A DNA stretch of 64,000 nt from Janthinobacterium agaricidamnosum. Lineage in GTDB: Bacteria > Pseudomonadota > Gammaproteobacteria > Burkholderiales > Burkholderiaceae_D. Location of the stretch: positions 3,596,001 to 3,660,000 of the forward strand of contig NZ_CP033019.1 of the NCBI RefSeq assembly GCF_003667705.1, given 5' to 3'. Below, in pieces: positions 8,864-39,093 of the stretch. Under the pieces are notes generated by a model. That model saw only the letters and a list, made by a program, of their open reading frames with translations, was not told the origin of the DNA and did not search any database. The number at the start of each line of letters is the position of its first letter. Position 1 is the first letter of the stretch. Position numbers and translations under genes: made by a program.

Positions 8864-8911
8864 TTCACTTTGGCGCCGCTTTTTCCTGCTTAACGCTGAC
8901 GGAGCGCCCGC

Positions 8912-11041: not shown

Positions 11042-12500
11042 GTTCATTGCCACGCCGCGCCAGCGACTGGTCTGGGCGCTCACCACATTTCTCTTCGTCA
11101 TTTTCCTGGCACTTTGGTCCATCTGGCCGGAATATGCCGGTCACCAGTACGCCCATTCACCTGGAGACCTCATGAAACAGTTCCTCGCGCTGCCCATGCT
11201 CGCCGCTTTCTCCATGTTTGCGCTATTGACGGCCTGCGCCGTGAAACCTGCACAGAAAGAAGACGATCTCCCACCAATCACGGCCCACGTTCCTTTCCGG
11301 GCACAAGTGGTGGGACTGCAGTGGCTCAATCCGCTGCAGCGGCTCGACTATCCGACCGAGTGGCAGTTGCTCTGGACGCTCGGCCTGGCCAAACCCAACA
11401 AGAATGACGATATGGTCAGGACGGATCCCAGGGGTTTCAGCACCCTGCAGGCCGTCGCCCCCATTGCCCACGATATCAATGGCAGGGAAACGTTCAAGGG
11501 CTATCACCATAAGTATCTGCGCGAGCTGATGACCAATTTTCACGACATTTACTATTCCAGCCCCACCTACTTCTACCACGTCTATCCCAAGGATCAAAAA
11601 CAGAACTGGCGTGAACTGGCAGGCATCCGCGTGGAATATGCCCTGCCTGAAGGGAAATTCGATCTGGCAGAAGTACACCAATTCACGCAGCAAACCATCA
11701 CCGACACCTTCAGCATCGGCAACACCCACTTCCCCACCCTCTGGACCCGCGCCACCCCGCCCGACGTGCGCATCACCCTGGGCGGCAACAATGCGGGCTT
11801 CGTCTCCCTGCAAGCCGCGCTGGCCTACCTGGAAGCGCATCCGCAGCAAACCGTATGGGTCATGAACTGGGACGCGCCGAGCCGGCCAAAAACCATGCAG
11901 ATCAATGAAAACCTCGTGCTGCTGGTGCTGGCCGGCCCTGATTACAAAACGGAGCGGGCGGCGCTGGCGTGGATAGGCTATCCGGCCGCGCGCAAGGTGG
12001 CCGATTTTGAAACGGGCAAGGACAAGCCTCCACGCGCCGTGCAGGCGTGGCAGGCCGTGTTTGCCGAAGCGGCGCGCCAGGGCGGCAAGACGGAAGAAGA
12101 GATCGGCTACGTCATCCACGACGCCAACAAGACCTTGCCCACCTCCTCCGACCGGCTGCGCCAGCTTGCGCATGCCTTGAGCCTGGAAGTGCAGGGCTTC
12201 GACTTCCTGCCGCAGACTTTCAATACCCCGGCCCTGCTGGGCGAAATGGGCGCCGGCACGGCGCTGACCAATGTCGCTCTGGGCATCGCCCATGCCAACC
12301 ACGTCGGCCAGCCCGTGCTGGTGGCGGGCACCAGCGATCCTGCCAGCGTCACTGGCGTGCTGGTGTCGCCGCCGGCCATCGTGCGCCCCATCAAGCACGA
12401 CCAGCCGTGGTTCCGCGCGCGCGGCGAAAACCATGCCTACCTGCCGTGGTGGGGTATCCGCCACGACGCGGCGGACACTATGCGGGGTTATTCCGATTGA
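11034..12500 (+). CDS. Tla3-like type VI lipase adaptor (DUF2875)
   Basis: A 488-residue partner of the preceding lipase. The body starts PFRAQVVGLQWLNPLQRLDYP and the C-terminal third has a thiolase-like run (MGAGTALTNVALGIAHA, then LPWWGIRHDA). This fits the DUF2875/Tla3 family, which loads Tle3 onto its VgrG carrier in Pseudomonas. The GTG at 11034 overlaps tle3 by 8 nt and has GAGGA upstream. An in-frame ATG at 11172 also has GGAGA upstream; it would start a shorter protein whose N-terminus looks like a lipoprotein signal (ending LLTAC). With the long form there are two hydrophobic N-terminal segments (about 12-34 and 50-68). Confidence 0.78.
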   Translation: MRKFIATPRQRLVWALTTFLFVIFLALWSIWPEYAGHQYAHSPGDLMKQFLALPMLAAFSMFALLTACAVKPAQKEDDLPPITAHVPFRAQVVGLQWLNPLQRLDYPTEWQLLWTLGLAKPNKNDDMVRTDPRGFSTLQAVAPIAHDINGRETFKGYHHKYLRELMTNFHDIYYSSPTYFYHVYPKDQKQNWRELAGIRVEYALPEGKFDLAEVHQFTQQTITDTFSIGNTHFPTLWTRATPPDVRITLGGNNAGFVSLQAALAYLEAHPQQTVWVMNWDAPSRPKTMQINENLVLLVLAGPDYKTERAALAWIGYPAARKVADFETGKDKPPRAVQAWQAVFAEAARQGGKTEEEIGYVIHDANKTLPTSSDRLRQLAHALSLEVQGFDFLPQTFNTPALLGEMGAGTALTNVALGIAHANHVGQPVLVAGTSDPASVTGVLVSPPAIVRPIKHDQPWFRARGENHAYLPWWGIRHDAADTMRGYSD

Positions 12501-12621
12501 GTCCGAAGGCGACGCACATGACATGGCGTCAAACGCAACAACAAAATGCAAGTGATGCGCCTTCCGCCATACCATATCCCTCGGTACCATGTGGTGACCC
12601 TATTCGAGGATCCGCCACGCC

Positions 12622-14079
12622 ATGCCTTCACAATCCAAAACCGCTCCATCCAACCAGCAGGCCACCGAGGCCGCTGGCGCCAAGCCGCCCGTGCGCGGCG
12701 CCCTTGCCAGCCTGTCCCTGTCGATGCTGCTGCCCGCGCTGGGCACCAGCATCGCCAACGTGGCCCTGCCCGACATGGCCAGGGCCCTGCATGCGCCGTT
12801 CCAGGACGTGCAATGGATCGTGCTGGCCTACCTGCTGGCCATCACCGCGCTGATCGTCAGCGTGGGCCGCCTCGGCGACATGATCGGCCGGCGCCGCCTG
12901 CTGCTGGCCGGCATCGCCCTGTTCGCCGCCGCCTCCATCCTGTGCGCCTTGGCGCCCACCCTGTGGCTGCTGGTCGCCGCGCGCGCCCTGCAGGGCCTGG
13001 GCGCTGCCGTCATGATGGCGCTGACCATGGCCTTTGTCGGCAGCATCGTGCCCAAGGCGCAGACGGGCAGCGCCATGGGCCTGCTCGGTACCATGTCGGC
13101 AGTCGGCACCACGCTCGGGCCCGCGCTGGGGGGCCTGCTGATCGCGCGCTTCGGCTGGCAATCCATCTTCCTCGTCAACGTGCCGCTTGCCGGCGTGGCG
13201 CTGCTGATGGTCTGGCGCTTCCTGCCGGCCGACCAGCACGGCGCGCACGCCAAGCGGCCCGTCTTCGACCACCGCGGCACCTTGCTGCTGGCGCTGACCC
13301 TGGCCGCGTACGCGCTGGCCATGACCCTGGGGCACGGCCATTTCGGCATGCGCAACGTGGCGCTGCTGCTGGCCGCCTGCGTGGGCGGCGCCCTGTTCGT
13401 GTATGTGGAACTGAAGGCGCCGGCGCCGCTGATCCGCCTGGCCATGCTGCGCGCGCCCGTGCTCAGCGCGGGCCTGGCGACCAGCATGCTGGTGTCGACG
13501 GTCATGATGTCGACCCTGGTGGTCGGTCCCTTCTACCTGGCGCACGGCCTGTGTCTGGGCACGGCCGTCACCGGCATGGTGCTGGCGGCCGGACCGCTGG
13601 TGGCGGCGTTCTGCGGCGTGCCGTCCGGCTGGCTGGTGGACCGCTACGGCGCGCAGCGCATGGGCGGCGCGGGCCTGTGCGGCGCGGCCGCCGCCTGCCT
13701 GGCGCTGTCGCTGATGCCCGCCAGCCTGGGCATCCCCGGCTACGTCGCACCGATCATGCTGCTCACGGCCAGCTACGCGCTGTTCCAGGCGGCCAACAAT
13801 ACGGCCGTGATGGGCGACATCGTCCCCGACCAGCGCGGCCTCATTTCCGGCATGCTCAATCTGTCGCGCAATCTGGGCCTCGTCACGGGCGCCTCCGTGA
13901 TGGGCGCCGTCTTCGCCGCCGGCGCTGGCGATATCGCCGGCGCCCGGCCAGCCGCCATGATCCGTGGCATGCACGCTACCTTTGCCGTCGCCAGCGCGCT
14001 GATACTCGCCGCGCTGGCCATTTTCGCGCTCGGCCGCGTCCTGGCCAAGCCCCCTACGTCTTCTGGAGACCCCGCATGA
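12622..14079 (+). CDS. MFS drug transporter (DHA2/EmrB-QacA type)
   Basis: A 485-residue polytopic membrane protein. It has the MFS motif A region (GRLGDMIGRRRLLL), motif B (ALQGLGAAVMMAL) and the antiporter motif C region (GTTLGPALGGLL). These place it with proton-driven multidrug exporters of the DHA2 group. A GAGG ribosome site precedes the ATG. Its stop overlaps the start of the adaptor gene (ATGA), making it the first gene of a four-gene efflux operon. It is unusual that an MFS gene heads an RND operon rather than using its own EmrA-type adaptor. Confidence 0.92.
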   Translation: MPSQSKTAPSNQQATEAAGAKPPVRGALASLSLSMLLPALGTSIANVALPDMARALHAPFQDVQWIVLAYLLAITALIVSVGRLGDMIGRRRLLLAGIALFAAASILCALAPTLWLLVAARALQGLGAAVMMALTMAFVGSIVPKAQTGSAMGLLGTMSAVGTTLGPALGGLLIARFGWQSIFLVNVPLAGVALLMVWRFLPADQHGAHAKRPVFDHRGTLLLALTLAAYALAMTLGHGHFGMRNVALLLAACVGGALFVYVELKAPAPLIRLAMLRAPVLSAGLATSMLVSTVMMSTLVVGPFYLAHGLCLGTAVTGMVLAAGPLVAAFCGVPSGWLVDRYGAQRMGGAGLCGAAAACLALSLMPASLGIPGYVAPIMLLTASYALFQAANNTAVMGDIVPDQRGLISGMLNLSRNLGLVTGASVMGAVFAAGAGDIAGARPAAMIRGMHATFAVASALILAALAIFALGRVLAKPPTSSGDPA

Positions 14080-15212
14080 TGCGCCCCCGTCCGATCCCGT
14101 CCCTGCCCTTCCCACTGCTGCTGGCCCTGGCCTGCAGCGCCACTTTATCCGGCTGCGGCCGTTCCCAGGCCGCGCCTGGCGGCCTGCCGCCCAAGCCCAC
14201 CGTGTCCGTGGCCCTGCCCGAATCGTCGATGGTGCAGGCAAGCCTCGACTACACGGGCCGCATCGAACCATCGCAGCGCGTGGAAGTACGCTCGCGCGTA
14301 TCGGGCTACTTGCAGCAAATCGCGTTTCGCGATGGCCAGCAGGTCAAGGCCGGCGATGCGCTGTTCGTCATCGACCCGCGCCCCTTCGCGGCGGCGCGCG
14401 ACCGCGCCCGAGCCAGCCTGGCCCAGGCCCATGCGCGCAGCAAGCTGGCCACGGCCCAGTTCGAACGCAGCAGCCGGCTGCAGCAGACGGGCGCGGCCAG
14501 CACCGAGGAGCTGGAACGGGCGCGCGGCGAGCTGGAAGGCGCGCAGGCGGCCGTCATGCTGAGCCAGGCGGAATTGCGCAGCGCCGAACTGGAACTGTCC
14601 TTCACCACCATGCGCGCGCCCATCGCCGGCACGGTGTCGGACCGCCGCGTCGACGTCGGCAACTACGTGGCCGGCGGCGCCGCGCAAAGTGGCGTGCTGA
14701 CCACCATCGTCGCGCACAGCCCCGTGCGCGCCACGGTCGACCTGTCGGAAGCGGATTTCCAGCGCCTGCGCCAGCACAGCAGGCTGCCGTCCAAGGTGCA
14801 GCTGGCGCTCGACGGCGGCGGCCCCGCCCAGGAAGCCAGCGTCGATTTTGTCGACAACGAGATCAGCGTCCGCTCGGGCACGGTGCGCCTGCGCGCCAGC
14901 CTGGCCAACGCCGACCACGCCGTCATGCCGGGCAGCTTTGCGCGCGTGCGCATTCCTGTCGGCGCGGCGCAAGAGCGCCTGCTGGTGCCCGACGCCGCCA
15001 TCCTCAGCGACCAGAACAAAAAGATGGTGTTCATCGTGGACGCGGCGGGCAAGGTGGCGCCGCGCAAGCTGGAACTGGGCGGCCTGCAGGGCGACAAGCA
15101 GATCGTGCTGTCCGGCCTCGGACCGCAGGAGCGGGTCATCGTCTCCGGCGCGGCCAAGGTGCGCCCAGGCGACCAGGTGCTCGTGGCCGCTCCCCGCGCC
15201 AGCGGCGCATAA
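14076..15212 (+). CDS. RND efflux periplasmic adaptor (membrane fusion lipoprotein)
   Basis: A 378-residue AcrA/MexA-type adaptor. The N-terminus has a lipoprotein signal with the lipobox LSGC at about residues 24-27. Next come the barrel-sandwich half-motif (GRIEPSQRVEVRSRVSGYL), a coiled-coil hairpin (about 95-165) and the second half-motif (TMRAPIAGTVSDRRVDVG). It should bridge the inner-membrane pump and the outer-membrane channel. The ATG at 14076 overlaps the MFS stop by 4 nt; a second ATG follows immediately. The RND gene starts 10 nt after its stop. Confidence 0.93.
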   Translation: MMRPRPIPSLPFPLLLALACSATLSGCGRSQAAPGGLPPKPTVSVALPESSMVQASLDYTGRIEPSQRVEVRSRVSGYLQQIAFRDGQQVKAGDALFVIDPRPFAAARDRARASLAQAHARSKLATAQFERSSRLQQTGAASTEELERARGELEGAQAAVMLSQAELRSAELELSFTTMRAPIAGTVSDRRVDVGNYVAGGAAQSGVLTTIVAHSPVRATVDLSEADFQRLRQHSRLPSKVQLALDGGGPAQEASVDFVDNEISVRSGTVRLRASLANADHAVMPGSFARVRIPVGAAQERLLVPDAAILSDQNKKMVFIVDAAGKVAPRKLELGGLQGDKQIVLSGLGPQERVIVSGAAKVRPGDQVLVAAPRASGA

Positions 15213-23585: not shown

Positions 23586-24536
23586 ATGCATTTAATTAAA
23601 GACGCGCTCGACTTTGGCCCCTGGCTCGATGCCGCCGCCGGCACCAGCGTGGGCGCCGGCCCGATGCCCCGGCGCGAAAACCAGGACAACTTCCTGCTGA
23701 TCGATGCCAGCGGCCATGCCGTCTGCCTGTCGCGGCAGGCGCCGTTCCACTGCCAGGTGCCGGGCTGGCCGCGCGGCCACGTGCGTGCCGCCGTGCTCGA
23801 CGGCATGGGCGGCCACGGCCTTGGGCGCGAAGCGGCGGAAGCGGCCGTGCAAGGCTTGCTGGCCGTACCCGCCTGCCTCGACACGGCCAGCCTGGCAGCC
23901 AAACTCGACCAGTTGCACACGCGCTTGCAGGATACCTTCGCCAGGACGGCGCCAGCTCAGGCCCGCCCGCCGGGCACCACTCTGACCTTGCTGGAAGTGC
24001 CGCCCGGCGAAGCCCCGCTGCTGTATCACGTGGGCGATTCGCGCCTGTATGAAATTGCCGACGGGGTTGCCAGCATCCTCACCGTCGACCACGTGCCGGC
24101 CACCGTGTACGCCATGCGCGGCGCGCTCGACGAGACGCGCTGGCGCGCCGCCGTGCACGGCGAGCACCATCCGCAAATCTCGCAGGCCTTCATTTTAGGC
24201 AACGCCATCAGCGACAGCTTGCAGCTCGACAAGCCCTTGCGCGGACTCGATGCGGCCACCTTGCCGCCCTTCCTCGCGCACCTGGGCGACCGCCGCGTGC
24301 TGCGCGTGCGTCCCGGCGCCCACTATCTGTTGGCCAGCGACGGTTTCTGGGCCTGCGAGGATCCGCTGGCCCTCACGGCCCGCTGGCCCGCCTTGTGTGC
24401 CGGCAAGACTGCGGCTCAGGCCGTCAGCGACCTGTTCGACGACTTCCTCTTGCATCCGCCAAAAGGCTTGTATAGCGATAACATTACCGTGGTGGCGCTG
24501 CGCTTCGATGCGGCATTCACCGTCCCAGGCGGCTAG
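23586..24536 (+). CDS. PP2C-family protein phosphatase
   Basis: A 316-residue PPM/PP2C phosphatase. The metal-binding motifs are complete: RRENQDNF, LDGMGGHG, HVGDSRLYEI, LASDGFW and SDNITVVALR. It should remove phosphate from Ser/Thr residues in the cytosol; no membrane segment is seen. An insert with two cysteines and histidines (AVCLSRQAPFHCQVPGWP) precedes the DGMGGH motif. The start MHLIKDALDF is preferred, though a GTG at 23541 is in frame; neither has a clear ribosome site. A Ser/Thr kinase (34422-36734) and an FHA protein (26138-27781) lie nearby. The 3' end overlaps the convergent DUF2177 gene by 20 bp. Confidence 0.88.
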   Translation: MHLIKDALDFGPWLDAAAGTSVGAGPMPRRENQDNFLLIDASGHAVCLSRQAPFHCQVPGWPRGHVRAAVLDGMGGHGLGREAAEAAVQGLLAVPACLDTASLAAKLDQLHTRLQDTFARTAPAQARPPGTTLTLLEVPPGEAPLLYHVGDSRLYEIADGVASILTVDHVPATVYAMRGALDETRWRAAVHGEHHPQISQAFILGNAISDSLQLDKPLRGLDAATLPPFLAHLGDRRVLRVRPGAHYLLASDGFWACEDPLALTARWPALCAGKTAAQAVSDLFDDFLLHPPKGLYSDNITVVALRFDAAFTVPGG

Positions 24537-26137: not shown

Positions 26138-27781
26138 ATGTCCCCGCTCGATTCGAGTCAGAATGTCATGAAAAAATGCAGCAACCCGGAGCACCCGCAC
26201 TGTACGTTCTGGGTCTTGCCTGGGGAAACAGTCTGCGCGGGCAACCACCCGCAAGCGACGAATGCCCCCAGCAGCTACGACCTGTTGAGCGCACTGCGCA
26301 GCGCCCGTTCCGAACCATCGGCAACGGCGCTTCCGCACGCCCGTGCGCATGATGCTGCGATGCGCGATGCGGTGATACGCGATGCTGCTCAAGCGGTGAC
26401 CAGCCTGACCAGCCCCATGCCAGCCTCGCCCCCCGCCAGCCTGCCGGCATTTACCCCAGTGCCCGCCGCACAGCCGGCCACTGCGCCCGCTTACCAGCCG
26501 ATACATGCCCACCTGCACATCAGCGGCTTCGATCCCCGTGCGGCAGGCGGACGGCAAACCCTGAAGATGGAATTGCGCGGCATGAGCGCCGCCTGCGCGC
26601 CGCAGCTGACCTTGCGCCTGCGCTCGGACCTGATCCCGCGCGGCGCCGTCCAGCATGATTTCGTGCGCACCACGCGCGGCGACTGGCGACCCGTATTTGT
26701 CGAGTTTTCCTCGCGTAACAAGGAGCACGGGCAATACCAGATCGAGGTGGAAGTACACAGCCACGTCGACGGCGCCGTGGCGCAGAAATGGGTATGCACG
26801 TTTGTCATCCTCGTACCGCGCCGCGACGCCACCCTGACGGAAATCCACCAGATCTTCCTCAGCACGCACAAGAACGTGCGCGTGATGGCCGACGACGCCT
26901 CGATTGCCCGCGTGACGGGCGGCGACGGCTGCAACCTCGACGTCACCGCGCGCAATGCCGGCATTGCCCACGTGGATTTGTCGGCGCCGCAAGGCAAGAT
27001 CGACATGGGTTTTACCACCATCGCCTGGGACGAGGAATTGATCGAAGTCGACCTGCCCGCCGCCAGCCACTGCCATCCGCACCCGAGCCAGGCTGCCTGC
27101 CTCGTCAATGCGGCGCCGGAAGCGGGCGAGCAGCGCCAGATCCGCCTGTTCGCGCTGGAAGAATGCATGCTGGGACGCTTCGAGCTGGTGGACCCCGAAG
27201 CCGATGTGCTGCTCAGCCATTTCAGCCCCGACGGCCAGGACAACAATGGCTTGACGCGCCGCCTGTCGGGCCGCCACGCCATCATCCGGCGCAGCCAGCA
27301 AGGCTTTGAAATCGAAGACGTGTCGCGCTACGGCGTGCTGCTCGACGGCGTCTGGCCCGGCAAGCACAAACCCGTCGCCCTGCGCCTGGGCATGCGCATC
27401 GAATTGTCCGCCAGCATCAAGGGCATCGTCGTGCTCCGCGTCACGGCCATCCTCGCGCACGGCGTGATCCTGCACCGCATCGACCACGGCGCCCGCGCCG
27501 AGTGTTTTTACCTGCTGCTGCCCGACACCCAGCCCACGCCGGCCAGCCACCTGGCCACGCCGCAGGCCGGCTGCCTTCCCCTGCTGTTCCACCGCAACGG
27601 CGGTTTCTGGCATCTGGACACGGCCAGCGGCAAGGAAACCGCGCTGGCCCCGGCCACGGCGCTCGACAAGCTCAGCGGCTTCGCGCGGCACAACCGCTTC
27701 GCCAGCGAACCGTATCCGGAATGCTGGATCATCCGCACCGAAGGCGCAGCGCTGTGCGATAGCACCATGCAAACTGCATAA
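26138..27781 (+). CDS. FHA-domain protein with N-terminal zinc-knuckle-like motif
   Basis: A 547-residue cytosolic protein. The N-terminus has a possible metal site, C14-x7-C22-x10-C33-x3-H37. An Ala/Pro-rich linker follows (about 65-120), then a beta-rich region of unknown fold (about 125-310) and an FHA domain (about 330-430). FHA landmarks LGRF (R347) and LSGRHAII (S377, H380) are present, while the usual asparagine of the peptide loop reads SRYGVLLDG. FHA domains bind phosphothreonine. The region after the FHA domain (440-547) is unrecognised. The ATG at 26138 has GAGGG upstream; MKKCSN at 26168 is an alternative. A PP2C phosphatase and a Ser/Thr kinase are encoded within 9 kb. Confidence 0.85.
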   Translation: MSPLDSSQNVMKKCSNPEHPHCTFWVLPGETVCAGNHPQATNAPSSYDLLSALRSARSEPSATALPHARAHDAAMRDAVIRDAAQAVTSLTSPMPASPPASLPAFTPVPAAQPATAPAYQPIHAHLHISGFDPRAAGGRQTLKMELRGMSAACAPQLTLRLRSDLIPRGAVQHDFVRTTRGDWRPVFVEFSSRNKEHGQYQIEVEVHSHVDGAVAQKWVCTFVILVPRRDATLTEIHQIFLSTHKNVRVMADDASIARVTGGDGCNLDVTARNAGIAHVDLSAPQGKIDMGFTTIAWDEELIEVDLPAASHCHPHPSQAACLVNAAPEAGEQRQIRLFALEECMLGRFELVDPEADVLLSHFSPDGQDNNGLTRRLSGRHAIIRRSQQGFEIEDVSRYGVLLDGVWPGKHKPVALRLGMRIELSASIKGIVVLRVTAILAHGVILHRIDHGARAECFYLLLPDTQPTPASHLATPQAGCLPLLFHRNGGFWHLDTASGKETALAPATALDKLSGFARHNRFASEPYPECWIIRTEGAALCDSTMQTA

Positions 27782-28779: not shown

Positions 28780-28803
28780 TTGACGCCGCCCGCATGGCAA
28801 TGT

Positions 28804-28822
28804 GATAATGAGTATCATTCTC
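28804..28822 (+). promoter_or_regulatory. Fur box upstream of the ECF sigma gene
   Basis: GATAATGAGTATCATTCTC matches the 19-bp Fur consensus GATAATGATAATCATTATC at 16 positions. It lies about 65 bp before the sigma-factor start, so the iron-uptake unit should be repressed when iron is plentiful. Confidence 0.85.
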
Positions 28823-28888
28823 AAACAGCCCAGCCAGCCGGCACCCCGCGTTCCGTCAGCCCAGCCCATCCCTTGCCTGGAGAACGCA

Positions 28889-29407
28889 GTGAGTACCGTC
28901 AGTCCCACCCATGCCAGCCACCTGAGCACCTTGTACAGCGAACACCATGGCTGGCTGTATGGCTGGCTGCGCGGCAAGCTGGGCAACCGCGCCGAGGCGG
29001 CCGACCTGGCGCAGGACACTTTTTTACGCCTGCTGGGCAAGCACGAGGTGGCACCGCTGGCGCCGCTGCGCGAGCCGCGCGGCTACCTGGCGACCATCGC
29101 GCGCGGCTTGCTGATCGACCGCTACCGGCGCCAGGCGCTGGAACAGGCCTATCTGGAAGCGCTGGCCCAGCAAGCCGAGCCGATATCGATCTGCGCCGAA
29201 ACGCACGCCATCATCATCGAAACCCTGTTCGCCATCGACCGCCTGCTCGACCGCCTGGGCGCGCGCACGCGGGCCATCTTCCTGCTGGCGCAAATCGAAG
29301 AACTGAGTTACGTGGACATCAGCCGGCGCCTCGGCGTGTCCTTGCCCACCGTGAAAAAGCACCTGGTGCGCGCCTACACGGAATGCCTGATGCTGGCGGC
29401 CGGCTGA
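28889..29407 (+). CDS. ECF sigma factor, FecI-like
   Basis: A 172-residue RNA polymerase sigma factor. Region 2 (LYGWLRGKLGNRAEAADLAQDTFLRLL) and region 4 (LAQIEELSYVDISRRLGVSLPTVKKH) are clear. The GTG at 28889 with CTGGAGAACGCA upstream is preferred; an open frame from 28802 would run through the Fur box. It overlaps fecR by one base (TGATG), and a STN-domain TonB receptor follows. That is the FecI-FecR-FecA surface-signalling layout. The siderophore is unknown. Confidence 0.92.
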   Translation: MSTVSPTHASHLSTLYSEHHGWLYGWLRGKLGNRAEAADLAQDTFLRLLGKHEVAPLAPLREPRGYLATIARGLLIDRYRRQALEQAYLEALAQQAEPISICAETHAIIIETLFAIDRLLDRLGARTRAIFLLAQIEELSYVDISRRLGVSLPTVKKHLVRAYTECLMLAAG

Positions 29408-30375
29408 TGTTTTCCCCTTCCACCCCGCAGTCAGCGCCCATCCCCCGCAAGGTGCTGGCCGCCGCCGCCCACTGGCATGTGGAACTCCAGTGCGGCAGCG
29501 CCGACCCGGCCGCCCTGCAGGCATGGCGCGACGCCAGCGCCGAGCATGACCGGGCCTGGGCGCTGCTGCAGCGCATGGACGGCCAGCTGGCCATCATACC
29601 GCCGGCGCTGGCAATTCCTGCCCTGCAGGCGGCGCAGCAGCGACGGCGCAGCGCCGCGAAAATGCTGGCCATGCTGGTGGCGGCCGGCGGCGGCATCATG
29701 TTGGGCCAGGCGGGCTTGCAGTCCGCCCCCTGGCAAGCGTGGACGGCGTCCTTGCGCACGGCGCCGGGCCAGCGCCGCCACGTGACGCTGGCCGATGGCG
29801 GGCGCATGGAGATGAATACGGACAGCGCCGTCGACGTCGATTACAGCGCCGCGCGCCGCCGCATCCGCCTGCATCACGGCGAAGTCATGATCACGACGGC
29901 GCCCGATGCGCGCCCCTTCCTCGTCGACACGCCGCACGGCGTGATCCGCGCGCTGGGCACGCGCTTCGGCGTGCGCTGCGATGACGGTGGCAGCGTCGTC
30001 AGCGTCTTCGAACACGCCGTGGAAGTGCGCGGCGCGGCGCGCCCGGATGCCGTGCGTCGCCTGGAAGCGGGGCAGCAGCTGCGCTTTGGCGGCACCGGTC
30101 TGGAAGCCGTGCTGGCCATGCCCGCGCACCAGGACAGCTGGCTGCGCGGCATGCTGGTGGCGGCAGACTGGCCGCTGCAACGGCTGGTGCAGGAACTGTC
30201 GCGCTACCGGCGCGGACGCCTGGCCTGCGACGCGAGCGTGGCGCAACGCCCCGTCACGGGCACTTACCGGCTCGACGATATCGACGCCGTGCTGGAAAGC
30301 CTGTGCGCCTCGCACGGACTGCAAGTGACCTACTTCACGCGCTACTGGGCCACGGTGGCGGCCCGTTCAAGCTAA
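29407..30375 (+). CDS. FecR-like anti-sigma/sigma regulator
   Basis: A 322-residue FecR-family protein. The N-terminal DUF4880-like cytosolic part (AAAHWHVELQCGSADPAALQAW...RAWALLQRMDGQL) is followed by one membrane segment (about 79-100). The FecR periplasmic domain follows (RHVTLADGGRMEMNTDSAVDVDY, then HGVIRALGTRFGVRCD). It should transmit the ligand-bound signal from the TonB receptor to the sigma factor. Translationally coupled to the sigma gene. Confidence 0.92.
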   Translation: MFSPSTPQSAPIPRKVLAAAAHWHVELQCGSADPAALQAWRDASAEHDRAWALLQRMDGQLAIIPPALAIPALQAAQQRRRSAAKMLAMLVAAGGGIMLGQAGLQSAPWQAWTASLRTAPGQRRHVTLADGGRMEMNTDSAVDVDYSAARRRIRLHHGEVMITTAPDARPFLVDTPHGVIRALGTRFGVRCDDGGSVVSVFEHAVEVRGAARPDAVRRLEAGQQLRFGGTGLEAVLAMPAHQDSWLRGMLVAADWPLQRLVQELSRYRRGRLACDASVAQRPVTGTYRLDDIDAVLESLCASHGLQVTYFTRYWATVAARSS

Positions 30376-30489
30376 TTACTTTCAGTTTTTTTTGCGCCAG
30401 GGGTTGGTGTTTCGCTGCGCTGCTTCGGCTTGACAGGTAAGAAGCCGATTCATCCACCATTGACCATATCCTGAGCAGAAAGACCGAGC

Positions 30490-32973
30490 ATGCAGCTGAC
30501 CACCCCCGTCCTACATCCCGCCGCGCGCGCCATCCGCCTGGCCGTCCTCGCCATGGCGTGCGCCGCCCCCGCCGTCTTTGCCGCCGCGCCCGCGCTGGCG
30601 CAAGGCCAGGCCGCCGCTTCAAGCGCTGCGCCGCAAGCCTACGCCATTGCGGCCGGCCCGCTGGCCACCGCTTTGAACGATTTTGCCGTCGCCGCCGGCG
30701 TCAGCCTGTCGACCGATCCCGCGCAGACGCGCGGCCTGCGCTCGCCCGGCGTGCGCGGCAGCCACAGTGTGGCGCAGGGCTTTGCCCAGGTATTGGCCGG
30801 CAGCGGCCTGGAAGCGGTGCAGCTGCCGAACGGCGCCTACGTGCTGCGCCAGGCGGCACCCTCCTCCGCGCCGGCGGCCGGCGTGGAAAAGACCATGGCG
30901 CCCGTGGTCGTGAACGCCAGCATGGAGCGCGACCCCGTCAGTGAACACAGCAACTCGTACGCGGCGCGCGCCGTCACCGTCGGCAAGGGCGTGCAGACCG
31001 TGCGCGAGATTCCCCAGTCCGTCAGCGTCGTCACGCGGCAGAAGATGGATGACCAGAACCTCAACTCCATCGACGCCGTGCTGGCCAACACCACCGGCAT
31101 CACCATGTACGACAGCCCCATGGGCGGGCGCTATGTATATTCGCGCGGCTTCATGGTCGACACTTACCAGTTCGACGGCGTCAACCGCGCCATGTACTAC
31201 CCGCAGGCGAACAGCTTCACCAGCAATACGGCCATGCTCGATCGCGTGGAGATCGTGCGCGGCGCCACGGGCCTGCTGCAGGGCACGGGCTCGCCGGGCG
31301 CCGCCATCAACATGGTGCGCAAGCGCCCGATGGCGGAAAAACAGGTGCAGCTGGCGCTCAGCGCGGGCCGCTGGAACGACGTGCGCGGCGAAGTCGATGT
31401 CACCGGCCCCTTGAACGAATCGGGCAGCATCCGCGGCCGCGCCGTGGCCGCGCATGACCAGCGCGATTATTTTTATGACGTGGCCGACAGCCGCACGGAC
31501 GTGCTGTACGGCGTGCTGGAATTCGACCTGGCGCCGGGCAGCAAGCTGACGACGGGCGCCAGCTACGAAAAACTGCACGCGACGCCCTTCTTTTCCGGCA
31601 TGCCGCGCTACCGCGACGGCAGCGATCCGAAACTGCCCCGCGAGACTTTCCTCGGTGCCGACTGGAACCGCTGGGCTAGCCGCCAGACGGCCGTCTTCGC
31701 CGAATTCGAGCACCGCTTCGACGCCGACTGGTCGCTCAAGGCCAGCGCCAACTACACGCGCGAGCGGCATGACGTGAAATACATGTTCAGCCAGGGCGCG
31801 ATCGACCCCGCCACCCTGGCCGGCATGATGATGTTTGGCGGCGTGTTCGACTACGGCAGCACCAACAAGGGCCTCGACCTGTCGCTCGACGGCAAATTCA
31901 ACGCCTTCGGCCGCCGCCACGGCTTCAGCGCCGGCATCAGCACGAACCGCCTGGAAAGCGACAGCGATTTCAGTCTGGCCCTGCTGCAGCAAGCGAACAA
32001 TCCGCTGCAGCCGAATCACGGCGTGGCCGAACCGAGCGACGCCTGGTTCCGCGAACACAGCTACCGGGGCGATCCCAGCGTAACAAAAATGACGCAGACG
32101 GGCGCCTACGGCGTGGCGCGCTTCAGCGTCAGCGATCCGCTCACCGTAGTGGCGGGCGCCCGCGTGTCGAACTACAAATGGAGCAGCGTGTACCGCGACA
32201 CGGGCGAGGTGTACATCGACCCGTACCGCGAAAACGGCGTCGTCACGCCGTATGGCGGCGTGATCTATGCATTCGACAAGCGCTGGTCCGGCTACGCCAG
32301 CGTTTCCGACATCTTCCAGCCGCAAAACCAGCGCACGGCCGATGGCGCCCTGCTCGACCCGCTCAAGGGCCGCAACCTGGAAGTGGGCGTCAAGGGTGAA
32401 CTGTTCGACGGCAAGGTGAACACCTCGCTGGCGCTGTTCCGCATCGAGCAGCGCAACCGCGCGGAACTCGACCTGGCTAATACCTGCTCCAGCGGCACGG
32501 AGTGCTATTTCTCGACGGGCAAGGTGCGCAGCGAAGGCCTCGATGCGGAAATCAGCGGCGAAGTGGCGCCGGGCTGGCAGCTGTTCGCCGGCTACACGCT
32601 GAACAATTTCAAGTACCTGGAGCAGACGTCGAACGCGGGCGTGATGTTCGCCAGCACCTACTCGCCGCGCCACATGCTGCGCGCGTGGAGCGACTACCGC
32701 CTGCCCGGCGCCTTGCAGCAGTGGAGCGTGGGCGGCGGCGTGAACTTCCAGACGGAGAGCTCGCGCGTCACGCGCGACGTGACCGTGGCGCAGGGCGCGT
32801 ATGCCTTGTGGAGCGCGCGCGCCGCGTACCAGATCGACCGCAACTGGACGGCGTCGCTGTCCGTGACGAACTTGCTCGACAAGCGCTACTACCAGACGGT
32901 GGGCGCGCCGGCCTGGGGCAATTTCTATGGCGAGCCGCGCAAGGCGCAACTGACCTTGCGCGCGCGCTTCTAA
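30490..32973 (+). CDS. TonB-dependent ferric-siderophore receptor with signalling domain
   Basis: An 827-residue outer-membrane receptor of FpvA/FhuE type. A signal peptide ends near PALAQG. An STN signalling domain follows (AYAIAAGPLATALNDFAVAAGVSL, about 50-120), then the plug (TVREIPQSVSVVTRQKMDDQ, DRVEIVRGATGLLQGTGSPG). A barrel ends in aromatic LRARF. The signalling domain talks to the preceding FecR. A pair of cysteines (NTCSSGTECYF) sits in an outer loop. The 114-bp spacer after fecR holds a possible promoter (TTGACA at 30431) and no gene. Confidence 0.95.
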   Translation: MQLTTPVLHPAARAIRLAVLAMACAAPAVFAAAPALAQGQAAASSAAPQAYAIAAGPLATALNDFAVAAGVSLSTDPAQTRGLRSPGVRGSHSVAQGFAQVLAGSGLEAVQLPNGAYVLRQAAPSSAPAAGVEKTMAPVVVNASMERDPVSEHSNSYAARAVTVGKGVQTVREIPQSVSVVTRQKMDDQNLNSIDAVLANTTGITMYDSPMGGRYVYSRGFMVDTYQFDGVNRAMYYPQANSFTSNTAMLDRVEIVRGATGLLQGTGSPGAAINMVRKRPMAEKQVQLALSAGRWNDVRGEVDVTGPLNESGSIRGRAVAAHDQRDYFYDVADSRTDVLYGVLEFDLAPGSKLTTGASYEKLHATPFFSGMPRYRDGSDPKLPRETFLGADWNRWASRQTAVFAEFEHRFDADWSLKASANYTRERHDVKYMFSQGAIDPATLAGMMMFGGVFDYGSTNKGLDLSLDGKFNAFGRRHGFSAGISTNRLESDSDFSLALLQQANNPLQPNHGVAEPSDAWFREHSYRGDPSVTKMTQTGAYGVARFSVSDPLTVVAGARVSNYKWSSVYRDTGEVYIDPYRENGVVTPYGGVIYAFDKRWSGYASVSDIFQPQNQRTADGALLDPLKGRNLEVGVKGELFDGKVNTSLALFRIEQRNRAELDLANTCSSGTECYFSTGKVRSEGLDAEISGEVAPGWQLFAGYTLNNFKYLEQTSNAGVMFASTYSPRHMLRAWSDYRLPGALQQWSVGGGVNFQTESSRVTRDVTVAQGAYALWSARAAYQIDRNWTASLSVTNLLDKRYYQTVGAPAWGNFYGEPRKAQLTLRARF

Positions 32974-34421: not shown

Positions 34422-36734
34422 CTAATCGAGCGTGCGCGCCACGCGGAAGCCCACGATGTCGTTCGACAGTACGGTGGAAAAACCGTTGCGCAGGGCCGAG
34501 CGCAGGTAGCGCGGGTGGTACAGCCACGAGCCGCCGCGCAGGATGCGCCGGCTGCTGTCGCTGCCCTCTTCCCATGCGCTGCCATCGACGGGCGCGCCTT
34601 CGTAATTGTCGTGCACCACGTCCTGCACCCATTCCCACACATTGCCATGCATGTCGAACAGGCCCCAGGAATTCGGCGCGAAGGTGCCCAGCGGGCTGGT
34701 GCCGCCCCGGTACACGCCGCGCGGGCCGCCGTTGTAGACATACAAACCGTCGTAGTTGGCTTGCTCGGTGCTGATCGTGTCGCCCACGTTGAAGGCCGTG
34801 CGCGTGCCGGCGCGGCATGCGTATTCCCATTCCGCTTCGCTGGGCAGGCGGTACTTGCGCCCGGTACGCTCGCTGAGCCACCCCAGATACAGCTGCGCGT
34901 CATTCCAGCTCACGCCCACCACCGGGTGCTGGTCGTTCTGCACGAAGCCGGGATTGTCCCAGTCCGTCTCGGAACCGCCCGCCCAGCCGGTCGCCTTGAC
35001 GAAGGCGCGCCATTCGCCCACGCTGACGGGGTGACGCGCCAGCGCGAACGGGCGCTCGATGCCGACCCAGTGCTGCGGCATCTCGCGCTCGAGCCAGGCC
35101 TGTTGCGAGCCGGCCTGGATGGCGGCCTTGTGTTCCGTCTCGTGCGCGCCCATCTGGAAACGGCCGCTGGGAATGAGCACCAGTTCCGGCCCCTGTCCCG
35201 AGCCATCGAGAAAATCGTCACGCAAGACGCCTTCCGCATTGGGCACCGGTTCCACGTGTTCCGCTTCCGGCGCCGGCGCGGATGCCGGCGCGGGGACAGC
35301 GGCCGCGGCGGCGCGGCTGGCCTCTTCGCGGCGCGCGCGTTCCTGCTCGGCGCGGTAGGCTGCCTCCGCCTTGGCGACGATGGCCTTGCGCTGCAATTCC
35401 TGGTGTTCCTGCAAGGCGGTGGCGGCATCGGCTTCGCGGCGCGCGCGCAGCTGGCCGCGCAGCGCTTCCTTGCGCAGCTTGCGCGCCTCTTCCGCTTCGA
35501 AATGGCGCTGCGCCTCCTGCTCGCGGCGCAGTTTGTCCAATCGCTGCTTTTCCAGCGCCGCCGCCTGGATTTCCGCCTTGCGGCGCTGGTCCAGTTCTTC
35601 CTGGCGCGCACGTGCCTCTTTGAGCGCCGCCTCGCGGGCCTGTTCGGCGGCCAGCGCCGCCTCCTTTTGCTGCTGCGCCGCGCGCGCCTGCTGCTGGCGC
35701 GCCTGCTCCGCCAGTTCTTCGGGCGACGGCCCGGCCGCGCGCTCCAGGTTTTCCAGCAAGGCTTGCACCGATTGCGGACGCAATTCCGGCGTCAGCGAAA
35801 ACCCGTTCTGCAGCACCTGCCACTGCTGCGCGTTGAGCGCTTGCGGCGCCGACGGCAGATGGCTGGCGCTGCGCGCGTCGTCGAACGGCATGCGCCCTTC
35901 GAGCATCTGGTAAATCATCACGGCCACCGCATACACGTCCAGGCGCGGGCTGGGCTGGCGCTGGTTGGCGCCGGCCTCGGGCGCCCGGTAGCCGTGCGTG
36001 CCCGCATTCGGCATGTCCAGTGCCAGGCTGCTGTCCGCATTGCGCACGCGCGAAGCGATGCCGTAGTCGAGCAGCTTGACGTCGCCTTTCGCCGTCAGGA
36101 AGACATTGCCCGGCTTGATGTCGCGGTGCACCAGCTTGTGCTTTTCCCACGCATACGACAGGGCGTCGGCCACCGGCTGCAGCAGCTGCTGCACCGTGGA
36201 CAGGGGCAGCGCGCCCTCGCGCGCCAGATAATGCTCGAGGTCTTCGCCATCGAGGCATTCCATGATGATGAAATAGCTGGCCGTGGCCGGGTCCTGCGCC
36301 CACTCGTAGACGCGCACGATGTTTTCATGCGCGAGCTTCCTCGCCTGGGTCGCTTCCTCGATCAGCAACTTGGCATGCGTGGCGCTTTGCGTCAGCTGCG
36401 GCGGCAAGATCTTCAGCGCCACCATTTCGCTGCTGCCCAGTTCCGCGTGCGTGGCCAGGTCGGTCGCTTGCCACACCTGCCCCATGCCGCCCGTGCCGAT
36501 CAGCCGTTCGAGCCGGTAGCGGCGGTTCTGCGGGCCGATTTCCTGGCCCGTCATGAAGCCCAGCTCCGTGCCCTGGCGTACGGGCAACGGCGCGGCCACG
36601 GGAGCGGCGCCGGGCGGCGCGTACTCGGCGTCGAGGATGGCGTTCTTGCGGCGTTCAAATTCCTGCTCGCTGAGCAGCCCGTCGTCGTGGAGGGCGCGCA
36701 GTTCCCGCAGTTTGTCTCGTGCTTTTTGCATCAT
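34422..36734 (-). CDS. Ser/Thr protein kinase fused to a cysteine-less FGE-like domain
   Basis: A 770-residue cytosolic protein. Domains in order: SHOCT-like (3-38, LHDDGLLSEQEFERRK); kinase (about 72-332); Ala/Glu/Arg coiled coil (335-490); Pro/Ala linker; FGE/sulfatase-modifying-like domain (about 520-770). Kinase residues are intact: GTGGMG loop (80-85), K108, HRDIKPGN (D205) and a DYG in place of DFG (223-225). The FGE-like part has the family core (LPSEAEWEYACRAGTRT, DMHGNVWEWVQDV). Its end reads GGSWLYHPRYLRSALR, where active enzymes have two copper-binding cysteines (LCHxSYC pattern), so oxidase activity is unlikely and a binding role more plausible. No membrane segment. The ATG at 36734 lies 19 bp after the SPFH gene stop, so the two form an operon. 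Confidence 0.9.
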   Translation of the reverse strand: MMQKARDKLRELRALHDDGLLSEQEFERRKNAILDAEYAPPGAAPVAAPLPVRQGTELGFMTGQEIGPQNRRYRLERLIGTGGMGQVWQATDLATHAELGSSEMVALKILPPQLTQSATHAKLLIEEATQARKLAHENIVRVYEWAQDPATASYFIIMECLDGEDLEHYLAREGALPLSTVQQLLQPVADALSYAWEKHKLVHRDIKPGNVFLTAKGDVKLLDYGIASRVRNADSSLALDMPNAGTHGYRAPEAGANQRQPSPRLDVYAVAVMIYQMLEGRMPFDDARSASHLPSAPQALNAQQWQVLQNGFSLTPELRPQSVQALLENLERAAGPSPEELAEQARQQQARAAQQQKEAALAAEQAREAALKEARARQEELDQRRKAEIQAAALEKQRLDKLRREQEAQRHFEAEEARKLRKEALRGQLRARREADAATALQEHQELQRKAIVAKAEAAYRAEQERARREEASRAAAAAVPAPASAPAPEAEHVEPVPNAEGVLRDDFLDGSGQGPELVLIPSGRFQMGAHETEHKAAIQAGSQQAWLEREMPQHWVGIERPFALARHPVSVGEWRAFVKATGWAGGSETDWDNPGFVQNDQHPVVGVSWNDAQLYLGWLSERTGRKYRLPSEAEWEYACRAGTRTAFNVGDTISTEQANYDGLYVYNGGPRGVYRGGTSPLGTFAPNSWGLFDMHGNVWEWVQDVVHDNYEGAPVDGSAWEEGSDSSRRILRGGSWLYHPRYLRSALRNGFSTVLSNDIVGFRVARTLD

Positions 36735-36753
36735 CTGGGGTGAAACGCTTCCA

Positions 36754-39093
36754 TCAAGGCTGCAGGGCGACACCGCAGGCGGCGCAGAATTTATCTTCCG
36801 GGTGACCCGCGCGCTGCGCATGGCCGTTCTTGCAGCGGGCCGGCGCCGATGCCGGTGCGGCGGAGGCAGAAGCCGCACCCGGCTGCAGCGCCTGCGCCAC
36901 GGCCACGCCCAGCTGCGCCTGCGCCGACAGGCCGTGCGCGTGCGCCGCGTTCTGCAGGTTGATCAGGTCGAGCTGCTGGCGCCGTTCGCGCTCCGCCTGG
37001 CCTTCCAGGTAGCTGCGCTCCTGCGCCACGCTGTCCTGCGCCATGCGCAGCGCGTCCAGCGGCGCGACGCTGTTCTCGGCCGCCGCCAGCGCCGCCAGCG
37101 CGTGGATCTGCTCGGCGCTCATGCCCGCCTGCAGCTGCACTTTCAGTACTTGCGCCAACGCGGCCGCGTTCTGCCCGGCGGCCATGGCCACCTTGCCCGT
37201 GTCGCTCAGCGAACCGATTTTCTCGATGCGGTCGATATCGATGCGCGCCAGTTCGGCCGCATGCGCCTGCTGCGCCAGCAACGCCTCATATTCTCCCTTC
37301 CAGCGCGCGTAATCGCTTTCGCGCTGCTGCGCCATGGCCAGCAAGTCGCGCTGCCATTGCGCTTCCTGTTCCAGCTGGCGCAGCTGCTGGCGCTGTTCCT
37401 CGATGGCCAGCGCGTCGAGCTGCGCCAGCTGCGATTGCTGCTGCAGCTGGCGCGCGTGCACGCCGTCGGCCTCGATGGTGCGCAGCAGCTTTTCCTGCTG
37501 CGCGACGGCCTCCTCGCGCGCGCCGCCGCGCCGCAGCGCCGCCACCTTTTCCGCGATCTCCGCCGCCTGCACCTGGGCCGCTTCATCCTTGTGCGCCTCG
37601 GCGCGCAGCAGTTCGCGCTGGCGCGCCAGCTGCATCTGGTCTTCCCACTCCTGCACCCGCTCGGCCTCGCGCTTGCGCGCCGCGTTCGCCAGCATCAGGC
37701 CCTGCCAGGCCGCCTGGTGCTGCTCCGCCTCCAGCTGCGCCTCGCGCTGGGCCGCATCCGCTTCCGCCTGGCGCAGGCGCGCCAGCTGGGTGCGGCGGCC
37801 CGTCTCGTCGTCGATCAGCAGCGCGCTTTCCACCTGCTGCGCGATCGACTGCAAGTGGACCTGGTGGGTAAAGCGCTGCTGCGCCATCTGGATCTGTTCG
37901 CGTCCATGCAGCTGCGACAATTCCAGCTCGCTGCGCATCTTGATGGCGGCCAGCGCGCGCACGTGTTCCCAGTTGGCCGCTGCATCGGCGCGCTGCGCGC
38001 CCTTTTGCGCCAGTTCCTGTTCCAGCTCGCCCAGCGCCAGCGCGGCGCCATGGTCGAGCGCCTGGCGCCGCGACTTCGCTTCCAGGATGCGGCCATACAG
38101 GTCGATCTGGCGTCCGCGCAGCGCTTGCAGGCGTTCTGCCTCCTGGTGGCCCAGTTCCGCCTTTTCCAGCGTCGCGTCCTGCCGCAGTTCGGCGCGCCGG
38201 TGCGCGTGGCGCGCCGCCAGTTCCTCGCGGCGGATGCGCTGCCATTCTTCCTCGTCATACAGCTGGTCGAGCTGCTTCATGCGCTCCAGGCTGTGCTGTT
38301 CCAGTTCCTGCGCCGGCAAGCCGCCCAGCCACAGGGTGCCGATGCTGGTGCCAGCATCGCCCTCGCCCGCGCGCTTGTCGTGTCGCAAACTGAGCGTTTC
38401 CACGCGCGCCACGGCCAGGCCGGACGGCGCCAGGCGCTGCGTCAGGGCCGATTGCAGGCGCTCGTTCAATTCGGGCCGCAGGTCGCCATTCGCGTCCATC
38501 TCGCGCAGTGCGCGGCTGCCGATGAATTCCAGCGCGATCTGGCGCACGGACGGCAGCAGCAAGGCGTGCAGGTGGGCGCGCGTGACGGCGCCCGGCGCGC
38601 GCATGAACTGGCGCGCGAACGCATCGGGCTGGCCCAGCGCGATGTCCACGCGCAGCGCGGCGGCGACGTCCAGCAGCTCCGTGCTGGCCAGGCCGGGCAG
38701 ATCGAATTCCAGGCTGACGGCGTCGGCGCGCGCGATCAGCACTTCGGCCGGGCGCGCCGGCAGCAGCGCCGGCAGGCGCGCGAAGAAGGCGGCGCTGTCG
38801 TAGTCGCCAGCCGGTATCAAGGTGAAAGCGTCCGATTGCACGATCCAGGCGCGCGACTCGGCGGGCACCTGCAGGCGGCGCGCGGCGCTGCCGAACAGCG
38901 AGGACAGTTCGCGCACGCCGAAGAACAGGGCCAGTTGCCCATCAGCAAGATGCCATTGATTGGCATGCAGCACCGCGTCGCTGTCGGGGGCGCCCAGCGA
39001 CAAGCCGCATTGCGCGCAGTAGCCGGCGGCAGCGCCGTTCTTGTGCTCGCAGCGCGGGCAGCGGGCGCCGCCAAAACCAAACAATTGGAACAT
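36754..39093 (-). CDS. Double-zinc-ribbon, SPFH-like, coiled-coil protein
   Basis: A 779-residue protein. An N-terminal zinc ribbon (C12-P-R-C15...C26-x2-C29) and a C-terminal one (C754...C770-x2-C773) flank the rest. Residues about 50-260 resemble an SPFH/band-7 domain (QVPAESRAWIVQSDAFTLIPAG, then VDIALGQPDAFARQFM). About 265-560 and 590-700 are Gln/Glu/Arg/Ala coiled coil. SPFH domains scaffold membrane-bound or oligomeric assemblies. No membrane helix is seen. A GGAG site precedes the ATG. It is the first gene of the operon with the kinase, so it is a likely partner or substrate. Function unknown; the domain assignment to SPFH is by pattern and needs a profile search. Confidence 0.85.
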   Translation of the reverse strand: MFQLFGFGGARCPRCEHKNGAAAGYCAQCGLSLGAPDSDAVLHANQWHLADGQLALFFGVRELSSLFGSAARRLQVPAESRAWIVQSDAFTLIPAGDYDSAAFFARLPALLPARPAEVLIARADAVSLEFDLPGLASTELLDVAAALRVDIALGQPDAFARQFMRAPGAVTRAHLHALLLPSVRQIALEFIGSRALREMDANGDLRPELNERLQSALTQRLAPSGLAVARVETLSLRHDKRAGEGDAGTSIGTLWLGGLPAQELEQHSLERMKQLDQLYDEEEWQRIRREELAARHAHRRAELRQDATLEKAELGHQEAERLQALRGRQIDLYGRILEAKSRRQALDHGAALALGELEQELAQKGAQRADAAANWEHVRALAAIKMRSELELSQLHGREQIQMAQQRFTHQVHLQSIAQQVESALLIDDETGRRTQLARLRQAEADAAQREAQLEAEQHQAAWQGLMLANAARKREAERVQEWEDQMQLARQRELLRAEAHKDEAAQVQAAEIAEKVAALRRGGAREEAVAQQEKLLRTIEADGVHARQLQQQSQLAQLDALAIEEQRQQLRQLEQEAQWQRDLLAMAQQRESDYARWKGEYEALLAQQAHAAELARIDIDRIEKIGSLSDTGKVAMAAGQNAAALAQVLKVQLQAGMSAEQIHALAALAAAENSVAPLDALRMAQDSVAQERSYLEGQAERERRQQLDLINLQNAAHAHGLSAQAQLGVAVAQALQPGAASASAAPASAPARCKNGHAQRAGHPEDKFCAACGVALQP

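What the first reader, a model, noticed from the sequence alone, without database searches (positions are those of the whole stretch)
34422..39093. Two-gene operon: SPFH/double-zinc-ribbon protein plus kinase fused to a cysteine-less FGE-like domain
The kinase has a clean SHOCT, kinase, coiled-coil, FGE-like order. In the last domain both copper-binding cysteines of active formylglycine-generating enzymes are replaced (Y and L in GGSWLYHPRYLRSALR), so it probably binds a ligand or protein. The 779-residue partner is flanked by zinc ribbons and has an SPFH-like region and a very long coiled coil. They are 19 bp apart and both have coiled coils, suggesting one complex. I know no named system with this exact pair.
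Basis: partly seen in the sequence, partly recalled or inferred. Interest (0 to 1): 0.75.

Follow-up and report, generated by a model that had tools for sequence, protein, structure and literature searches.

The report
SPFH scaffold paired with FGE-tailed kinase
A Janthinobacterium-type bacterium carries a conserved gene pair that makes a ring-type scaffold protein and a signalling kinase with a sensor-like tail; in many relatives the pair ends a seven-gene run that includes a cell-wall enzyme, which points to an undescribed bacterial signalling complex.

Summary
The minus strand carries a 779-aa protein with an N-terminal zinc ribbon, SPFH fold, long helical region and C-terminal Cys/His ribbon. 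19 bp on is a 770-aa SHOCT / kinase / coiled-coil / FGE-like protein whose FGE copper cysteines are Y and L. The window copy misses Pfam SPFH, but relatives match Band_7 and the AlphaFold model matches prohibitin, stomatin and HflK/C.

The pair is real: kinase directly downstream in 80 of 80 named loci and 54 of 55 genomes holding both. In other lineages this SPFH family is fused to an FGE-like domain (P0251) or to SHOCT (P0255), the kinase's flanking modules. One complex is therefore likely.

The system is larger than reported. In 50 of 80 loci the pair ends a seven-gene run starting with a membrane-anchored PBP-type transpeptidase. The window also holds FHA and PP2C genes that lie near the pair in relatives. 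One relative has a caspase-FGE protein in the kinase's place.

Best reading: a soluble SPFH scaffold that docks a Hanks kinase for envelope-linked phospho-signalling. No experiment supports function.

The parts
36754..39093 (-). SPFH / zinc-ribbon / long-helix scaffold gene (779 aa)
   Evidence: ORF; homologs; fold
39007..39060 (-). N-terminal four-cysteine zinc ribbon (residues 12-29)
   Evidence: sub-threshold DZR / Zn_Ribbon_1; motif in 78 of 80 loci; positions
38371..38892 (-). SPFH region (about residues 68-241)
37024..38253 (-). long helical, coiled-coil-like region (about residues 281-690; end is approximate)
   Evidence: model helix 281-329; the rest judged from sequence only, not modelled
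36775..36834 (-). C-terminal CxxxH...CxxC ribbon (residues 754-773)
   Evidence: motif in 77 of 80 loci; positions
34422..36734 (-). SHOCT / Hanks-type kinase / coiled coil / FGE-like gene (770 aa)
   Evidence: start ATG at 36734
36633..36716 (-). SHOCT domain (residues 7-34)
   Evidence: PF09851 2.8e-7
35859..36518 (-). protein kinase domain (residues 73-292), catalytic motifs intact
   Evidence: PF00069 1.5e-41; VAxK, HRD and DFG/DYG each in 80 of 80 aligned kinases
34434..35192 (-). FGE-sulfatase-like (C-type-lectin fold) domain (residues 515-767)
   Evidence: PF03781 7.8e-58; PvdO best PDB match
34488..34535 (-). GGSWLYHPRYLRSALR, site of the replaced copper cysteines (Y739, L744)
   Evidence: alignment to human FGE; no Cys in the 79 aligned sequences that reach this site
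26168..27781 (+). FHA-domain protein (537 aa), ortholog of the FHA gene near the pair in relatives
   Evidence: PF00498 1.3e-5; orthology; directly upstream of SPFH in 3 of 4 g32 loci
23586..24536 (+). PP2C-type phosphatase (316 aa), ortholog of the PP2C gene next to that FHA gene
   Evidence: PF13672 2.3e-5; Stp1 model 3.3e-11 (below its cut-off)

Best explanation
The pair encodes one signalling complex. The SPFH protein, which has no predicted membrane helix, oligomerises through its SPFH region and long helices into a membrane-near scaffold, as YdjI of Bacillus is membrane-associated through partner proteins. It docks the active Hanks-type kinase through the kinase's two flanking modules, SHOCT and the FGE-like domain. 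The FGE-like domain is a conserved, non-hypervariable docking or sensing module rather than a formylglycine maker. The signal is written by the kinase, read by the FHA protein and erased by the PP2C. In many relatives the scaffold-kinase pair is tied to the cell envelope by the operon's membrane-anchored PBP-type transpeptidase, so the stimulus is probably envelope or peptidoglycan state. Shown here: domains, fold, catalytic motifs, conserved adjacency, fusions, selection. Inferred: oligomer, binding, sensing, envelope role, and that FHA and PP2C act on this kinase's targets.
For: SPFH fold: Foldseek E 2.6e-8 to PHB1/2, with stomatin, erlin, HflK/C, flotillin. Adjacent in 54 of 55 genomes; in the exception (G001) both genes are kept at separate places. 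The upstream block is all present (50), all absent (26) or cut by a contig end (4) in 80 loci, and its presence changes at least 3 times on the tree (fewest 4) while the pair stays together; I read most changes as losses. Fusions: P0251 = SPFH-FGE in one chain (32% over 499 aa to the window SPFH protein; 37% over 259 aa to the window FGE domain); P0255 = SPFH with C-terminal SHOCT (5.4e-8). Kinase motifs VAxK, HRD, D[FY]G in 80 of 80 aligned rows. FHA directly upstream and co-directional in 3 of 4 g32 loci. Transpeptidase (48 sequences): SxxK 48, SxN 46, KTGT 48, hydrophobic N-terminal helix 45. YdjI: SPFH without membrane domain, C-terminal zinc finger, linked to PspA; its membrane partners affect cell-wall synthesis (PMC8581546, passages).
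Against: No interaction, localisation or phenotype data. The transpeptidase and four other upstream genes are absent from the window, 26 of 80 loci lack the block, and cl6 has no match anywhere in the window genome, so the envelope link is weakest exactly here. Four g32 kinases lack the FGE domain, so it is not essential everywhere. The family is patchy: 58 of 195 family genomes, 7 of 44 genera. FHA and PP2C lie about 7-11 kb away on the other strand in the window. P0251 and P0255 are single sequences, P0251 from a MAG. Residues 331-779 of the scaffold were not modelled.
Confidence: 0.53

Rival explanations
1. A conflict or programmed-response system: the FGE-like (C-type-lectin fold) domain senses an invader or damage, and the SPFH scaffold gathers an exchangeable effector (kinase here, caspase in one relative) that stops growth or kills the cell.
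For: Locus G330 (Chitinilyticum) keeps the gene order cl6 / cl11 / cl8 / cl10 ... SPFH but ends in caspase (5.6e-16) - coiled coil - FGE (4.2e-49), with FtsK-like, SH3 and a second FGE gene, beside a phage-type integrase. The SPFH gene is patchy, in 7 of 44 genera of the family. FGS domains are proposed invader sensors in conflict systems (PMC7159879, PMC8195603, passages).
Against: The FGE-like domain is under purifying selection and its key site nearly invariant; within the own genus all 13 genomes shown have the gene (unlisted misses possible); no PADLOC hit for the SPFH protein, and the kinase's PADLOC hits are to kinase-domain models.
Confidence: 0.27
2. The FGE-like domain is an enzyme (a PvdO-like oxidoreductase or other modifier) whose activity or target choice is controlled by the fused kinase and scaffold.
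For: Best solved relative is PvdO (1.7e-45) and the best NCBIfam hit is dihydropyoverdine dehydrogenase (4.7e-58, but 196.5 bits against a cut-off of 500). PvdO, EgtB and SenA models all match; that they are enzymes without the copper cysteines is recalled except for their names.
Against: No substrate gene recognised nearby; the domain is dispensable in the g32 genus, where 3 of 4 kinases keep only a 20-residue piece of it.
Confidence: 0.12
3. The kinase, PP2C and FHA genes are the threonine-phosphorylation control of a type VI secretion system.
For: FHA protein hits TagH weakly (1.2e-4, 22 bits, cut-off 120); a Tle3-type effector gene lies in the window.
Against: No T6SS core gene among the 17 window proteins scanned (many window ORFs were not scanned); T6SS genes elsewhere in the genome were not searched; the SPFH and PBP-type genes do not belong to that pathway (recalled).
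Confidence: 0.05

Closest known systems
YdjI of the Bacillus subtilis pspA-ydjGHI operon
   Same: SPFH domain, no membrane domain of its own, C-terminal zinc finger, operon partners that are membrane proteins, link of those partners to cell-wall synthesis (PMC8581546, passages)
   Different: No kinase or FGE partner; PspA not seen here; here an added N-terminal ribbon and a much longer helical region (recalled for YdjI's length); PF13421 matches are weak (best 0.0074)
SPFH superfamily cages: prohibitin, stomatin, HflK/C, QmcA, flotillin
   Same: SPFH fold over about residues 68-241
   Different: No membrane anchor predicted; zinc ribbons at both ends; genetic partner is a kinase, not FtsH or NfeD
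'Bifunctional serine/threonine-protein kinase / formylglycine-generating enzyme family protein' (an NCBI name of the kinase homologs)
   Same: Several of the kinase homologs carry this name, others 'SUMF1/EgtB/PvdO family nonheme iron enzyme'
   Different: The name implies an active FGE; the cysteine pair is absent here; the SPFH partner is not part of the name
PvdO, dihydropyoverdine dehydrogenase
   Same: Closest solved relative of the FGE-like domain; lacks the copper cysteines in the alignment
   Different: Not fused to a kinase (286-residue chain); 196.5 bits against an NCBI cut-off of 500
FGS-domain conflict systems (VMAP ternary, STAND-FGS) and DGR targets
   Same: C-terminal FGS/C-type-lectin domain on a signalling or caspase effector (PMC7159879, PMC8195603, PMC10907252, passages)
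   Different: No NTPase/MoxR/vWA recognised beside the pair; no hypervariable region; the one SPFH mention in PMC7159879 is a reference title and PMC8195603 has none
Actinobacterial GAP1-N2 GTPase-centric systems with kinase, zinc ribbon and PP2C
   Different: They centre on DO-GTPases and add a vWA gene; neither was recognised here, and no SPFH protein is named there

Membership tests
SPFH / Band 7 superfamily | Profile match to PF01145 | tested here: inconclusive
   Window copy: none. Relatives: 10 of 32 aligned members at E<=1, best 1.6e-8; P0256 over cut-off (24.9 against 23.6 bits)
SPFH / Band 7 superfamily | SPFH fold | tested here: met
SPFH / Band 7 superfamily | Ring or cage oligomer at a membrane | not testable with these tools
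   No multimer prediction; no TM helix by hydropathy
Hanks-type Ser/Thr kinase | VAxK lysine, HRD and D[FY]G motifs | tested here: met
   80 of 80 aligned kinases for each motif; Pfam
Formylglycine-generating enzyme (active FGE/SUMF1) | Two copper-binding active-site cysteines | tested here: not met
   Y and L in the window; no Cys in any of the 79 aligned sequences that reach the site
FGE-sulfatase / C-type-lectin-fold domain (PF03781) | Profile match over cut-off | tested here: met
   196.6 bits against 23.3
DGR-diversified variable protein | Hypervariable C-terminal region | tested here: not met
   C-terminal region is conserved (0.82-0.87 in the last windows) and under purifying selection
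DGR-diversified variable protein | Template repeat and reverse transcriptase | not tested
   Neither was searched for
YdjI-type SPFH/zinc-ribbon (Band_7_1, PF13421) | Profile match over cut-off | tested here: inconclusive
   16 of 32 aligned members match, best only 0.0074; not the window copy
NTP-dependent conflict systems (VMAP, GAP1 etc.) | MoxR/vWA, STAND or DO-GTPase core gene | tested here: inconclusive
   None recognised among the nine neighbour clusters scanned with Pfam; other neighbours were not scanned; an FtsK-like ATPase only in the G330 locus
T6SS threonine-phosphorylation pathway | FHA protein of the TagH/Fha family over cut-off | tested here: not met
   22.1 bits against 120.25

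The most novel reading that the evidence does not exclude
An undescribed bacterial signalling platform: an SPFH/zinc-ribbon scaffold family, found in seven sampled Oxalobacteraceae genera, a Chitinilyticum genome and a Desulfobulbia MAG, whose recurrent partner is an FGE-like docking or sensing module and whose effector is exchangeable (kinase, caspase, or the FGE module alone fused to the scaffold), with a seven-gene envelope version that includes a dedicated PBP-type transpeptidase and several orphan protein families.
Probability: 0.4. Interest if true: 0.8.

Novelty: new variant of a known kind. Interest (0 to 1): 0.6.

Why it matters
SPFH proteins organise membranes in all domains of life, but few bacterial ones have known signalling partners (recalled). 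A scaffold genetically locked to a Hanks kinase, with natural fusions showing which modules go together and natural losses showing which are dispensable, makes 'how do SPFH scaffolds recruit kinases' directly testable in easily grown, non-model bacteria. The FGE-like domain as a conserved, cysteine-less partner of a kinase or caspase also bears on how this fold was recruited as a sensor. The 20-residue FGE remnant kept at the end of three of four g32 kinases is a concrete candidate docking helix.

Tried and rejected
Active FGE: rejected on the missing cysteines. Diversity-generating sensor: disfavoured because the domain is conserved, not hypervariable. cl8 as a second SPFH protein: suspected from its sequence, but profile comparison with the SPFH alignment gave nothing and the model was poor (pLDDT 57, under 50 across most of residues 68-218), so no fold search was run: inconclusive. 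cl10 as a Lon/S5-like fold: my impression from motifs only; no Pfam, NCBIfam or PDB hit. cl6: HTH-like C-terminus by eye only; no reliable hit. cl11 was scanned with Pfam only. cl8 PDB hits (haemoglobin, 0.0076) taken as chance. SPFH by PDB sequence profile: none. Promoters: none found; terminator-like sites 6 against 4.2 (sd 2.4) in shuffles. The wider SPFH search found 5 of 300 order genomes, 1 of 369 class genomes and 2 of 398 phylum genomes, own genome included each time and some genomes repeated; only 2-3 first-look candidates per genome were scored, so misses are possible. Whether G330 has a kinase of this family elsewhere was not searched.

Motif counts were redone on all rows.

Papers: eight answered searches. 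None described this pair in the titles and listings seen; SPFH + FGE-sulfatase + kinase held 0 papers. One paper held SPFH + protein kinase + penicillin-binding + operon + FHA (mycobacterial PstP, PMC6554272; listing seen only). A search naming the host genera failed and was not repeated. I read passages only of PMC7159879, PMC8195603, PMC10907252, PMC8581546 and PMC2877116; most subscription papers are not in the library.

Full report
What is there. The window lies in a 6.36 Mb single-contig genome. The closest proteins to the scaffold are mostly named Janthinobacterium; the very first, P0001, is named Massilia. On the minus strand, 36754-39093 encodes a 779-aa protein and 34422-36734 a 770-aa protein; 19 bp separate the stop codon from the second ATG. 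The second has SHOCT, protein kinase and FGE-sulfatase domains over Pfam's cut-offs, with a coiled-coil-like stretch between kinase and FGE (judged from sequence).

Is the FGE-like domain an FGE? In the alignment to human FGE the two active-site cysteines correspond to Y and L. Among 80 aligned kinases, 79 reach this site and none has a cysteine in it; Y739 is kept in 78 and L744 in 78. The nearest solved relative is PvdO, so catalysis of another kind is not excluded. The kinase's own VAxK, HRD and D[FY]G motifs are present in 80 of 80; the glycine loop is altered in a few rows.

Is the pairing real? In 30 of 30 short loci and 80 of 80 named loci the kinase follows the SPFH gene directly. The reciprocal search is cleaner: among 190 family genomes, 60 matched the kinase at 1e-40; 55 of these had strong matches (1e-92 or better), and the same 55 also had the SPFH gene; 54 were adjacent on one strand. 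The other 5 are distant kinases without it. Three SPFH genomes (G190, G192, G193) do not appear, apparently because its 190 genomes stop short of them; G190 and G192 have the adjacent kinase (L007, L031). In the exception, G001, SPFH and kinase-FGE are both kept but 3.2 Mb apart. One search found the SPFH gene in 58 of 195 genomes and 7 of 44 genera; all 13 same-genus genomes shown had it, but most misses were not listed. Selection is purifying on both genes (dN/dS 0.07-0.27 and 0.09-0.18).

Fusions. Searching with the SPFH protein of G330 (identified as Chitinilyticum aquatile by a 100% match and equal contig length) returned 20 proteins. P0251, from a Desulfobulbia MAG, carries ribbon, SPFH-like region and helices followed by an FGE-like domain in one chain: 32% over 499 aa to the window scaffold and 37% over 259 aa to the window FGE-like domain, again without the cysteines. 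P0255 carries a C-terminal SHOCT (5.4e-8), the module at the kinase's N-terminus here. So both modules that flank the kinase are found fused to this scaffold family elsewhere. Each fusion rests on one sequence.

The larger system. One search clustered neighbours and one search counted them by tblastn. Directly upstream and co-directional in relatives lie cl5, cl6, cl11, cl8 and cl10. All five are in 50 of 80 loci, 26 have none, and 4 are cut by contig ends. cl5 has a PBP transpeptidase domain (1.5e-14 in the one sequence scanned); of 48 sequences, 48 have SxxK, 46 SxN, 48 KTGT and 45 a hydrophobic N-terminal helix. cl6, cl8 and cl10 have no reliable Pfam, NCBIfam or PDB match, cl11 no Pfam match. 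On a 72-row tree (69 of the 80 loci plus three g32 rows; 11 loci dropped for odd starts, short contigs or runs of N) the 'no upstream block' state needs at least 4 changes, 3 forced by well-supported branches; G001 and G330, not on the tree, have cl6, cl11, cl8 and cl10, so I read most changes as losses. The window has none of the five and cl6 has no match in the whole genome.

FHA and PP2C. The window holds an FHA protein (26168-27781) and a PP2C (23586-24536) on the plus strand, orthologs of genes found within the fetched flank of the pair in 46 and 27 of 80 loci; many flanks end before them. In 3 of 4 g32 loci the FHA gene is directly upstream of the SPFH gene, same strand; in the fourth a receptor-like gene lies between. 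These g32 kinases lack the FGE domain, yet 3 of 4 end in a 20-residue stretch matching its VSWNDAQLYLGWLSERTG helix (0 of 500 shuffles as good; the fourth 14 of 500).

The caspase version. In G330 the order cl6, cl11, cl8, cl10 is kept, then come an FtsK-like ATPase, a second FGE protein, an SH3 protein, the SPFH gene, and a 1344-aa caspase / coiled coil / FGE protein. A phage-type integrase lies beside it. This keeps the conflict-system rival alive.

How it most likely works. I read it as a YdjI-like SPFH scaffold (PMC8581546, passages) that concentrates a Hanks kinase near the envelope, with FHA as reader and PP2C as eraser. The link to the envelope comes from relatives, not from this genome. 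The complex is likely; the stimulus and the substrates are unknown.

Novelty. Each recognised part is of a known kind, and NCBI already gives some kinase homologs the name 'bifunctional serine/threonine-protein kinase/formylglycine-generating enzyme family protein'. In the eight answered paper searches I found no description of the SPFH-kinase pair or of the seven-gene run.

Noticed in passing
8912-11038 (+) and 11034-12497 (+): A Tle3-type T6SS phospholipase gene (PF24322, 2.6e-104) overlapping a 488-aa gene without any Pfam hit, possibly its immunity partner or adaptor.
   Followed up: no
28802-32973 (+): Sigma-factor-like, FecR-like and TonB-receptor-like ORFs in the FecI/FecR/FecA order, read from the ORF list only.
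   Followed up: no
L162 (G058), 1-14218: In a genome where one search lists no SPFH gene of this family, a kinase (DUF4384 tail) lies next to a caspase-FGE protein with a signal-peptide-like start (by eye), an FHA-GAF-HD protein, a PP2C-like stretch and a second kinase-like stretch: the same parts in another arrangement.
   Followed up: partly
L036-L039, kinase C-termini: Kinases without the FGE domain keep a 20-residue piece of it at the very end in 3 of 4 cases.
   Followed up: yes
L040 and L041: SPFH proteins without zinc-ribbon cysteines at either end; L040 keeps the upstream genes and kinase-FGE, L041 keeps four upstream genes but its kinase is elsewhere.
   Followed up: partly
L100:13742-14128 and 20 other loci: A PhnA/YjdM zinc-ribbon gene directly after the kinase in 20 of these 21 loci.
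   Followed up: no
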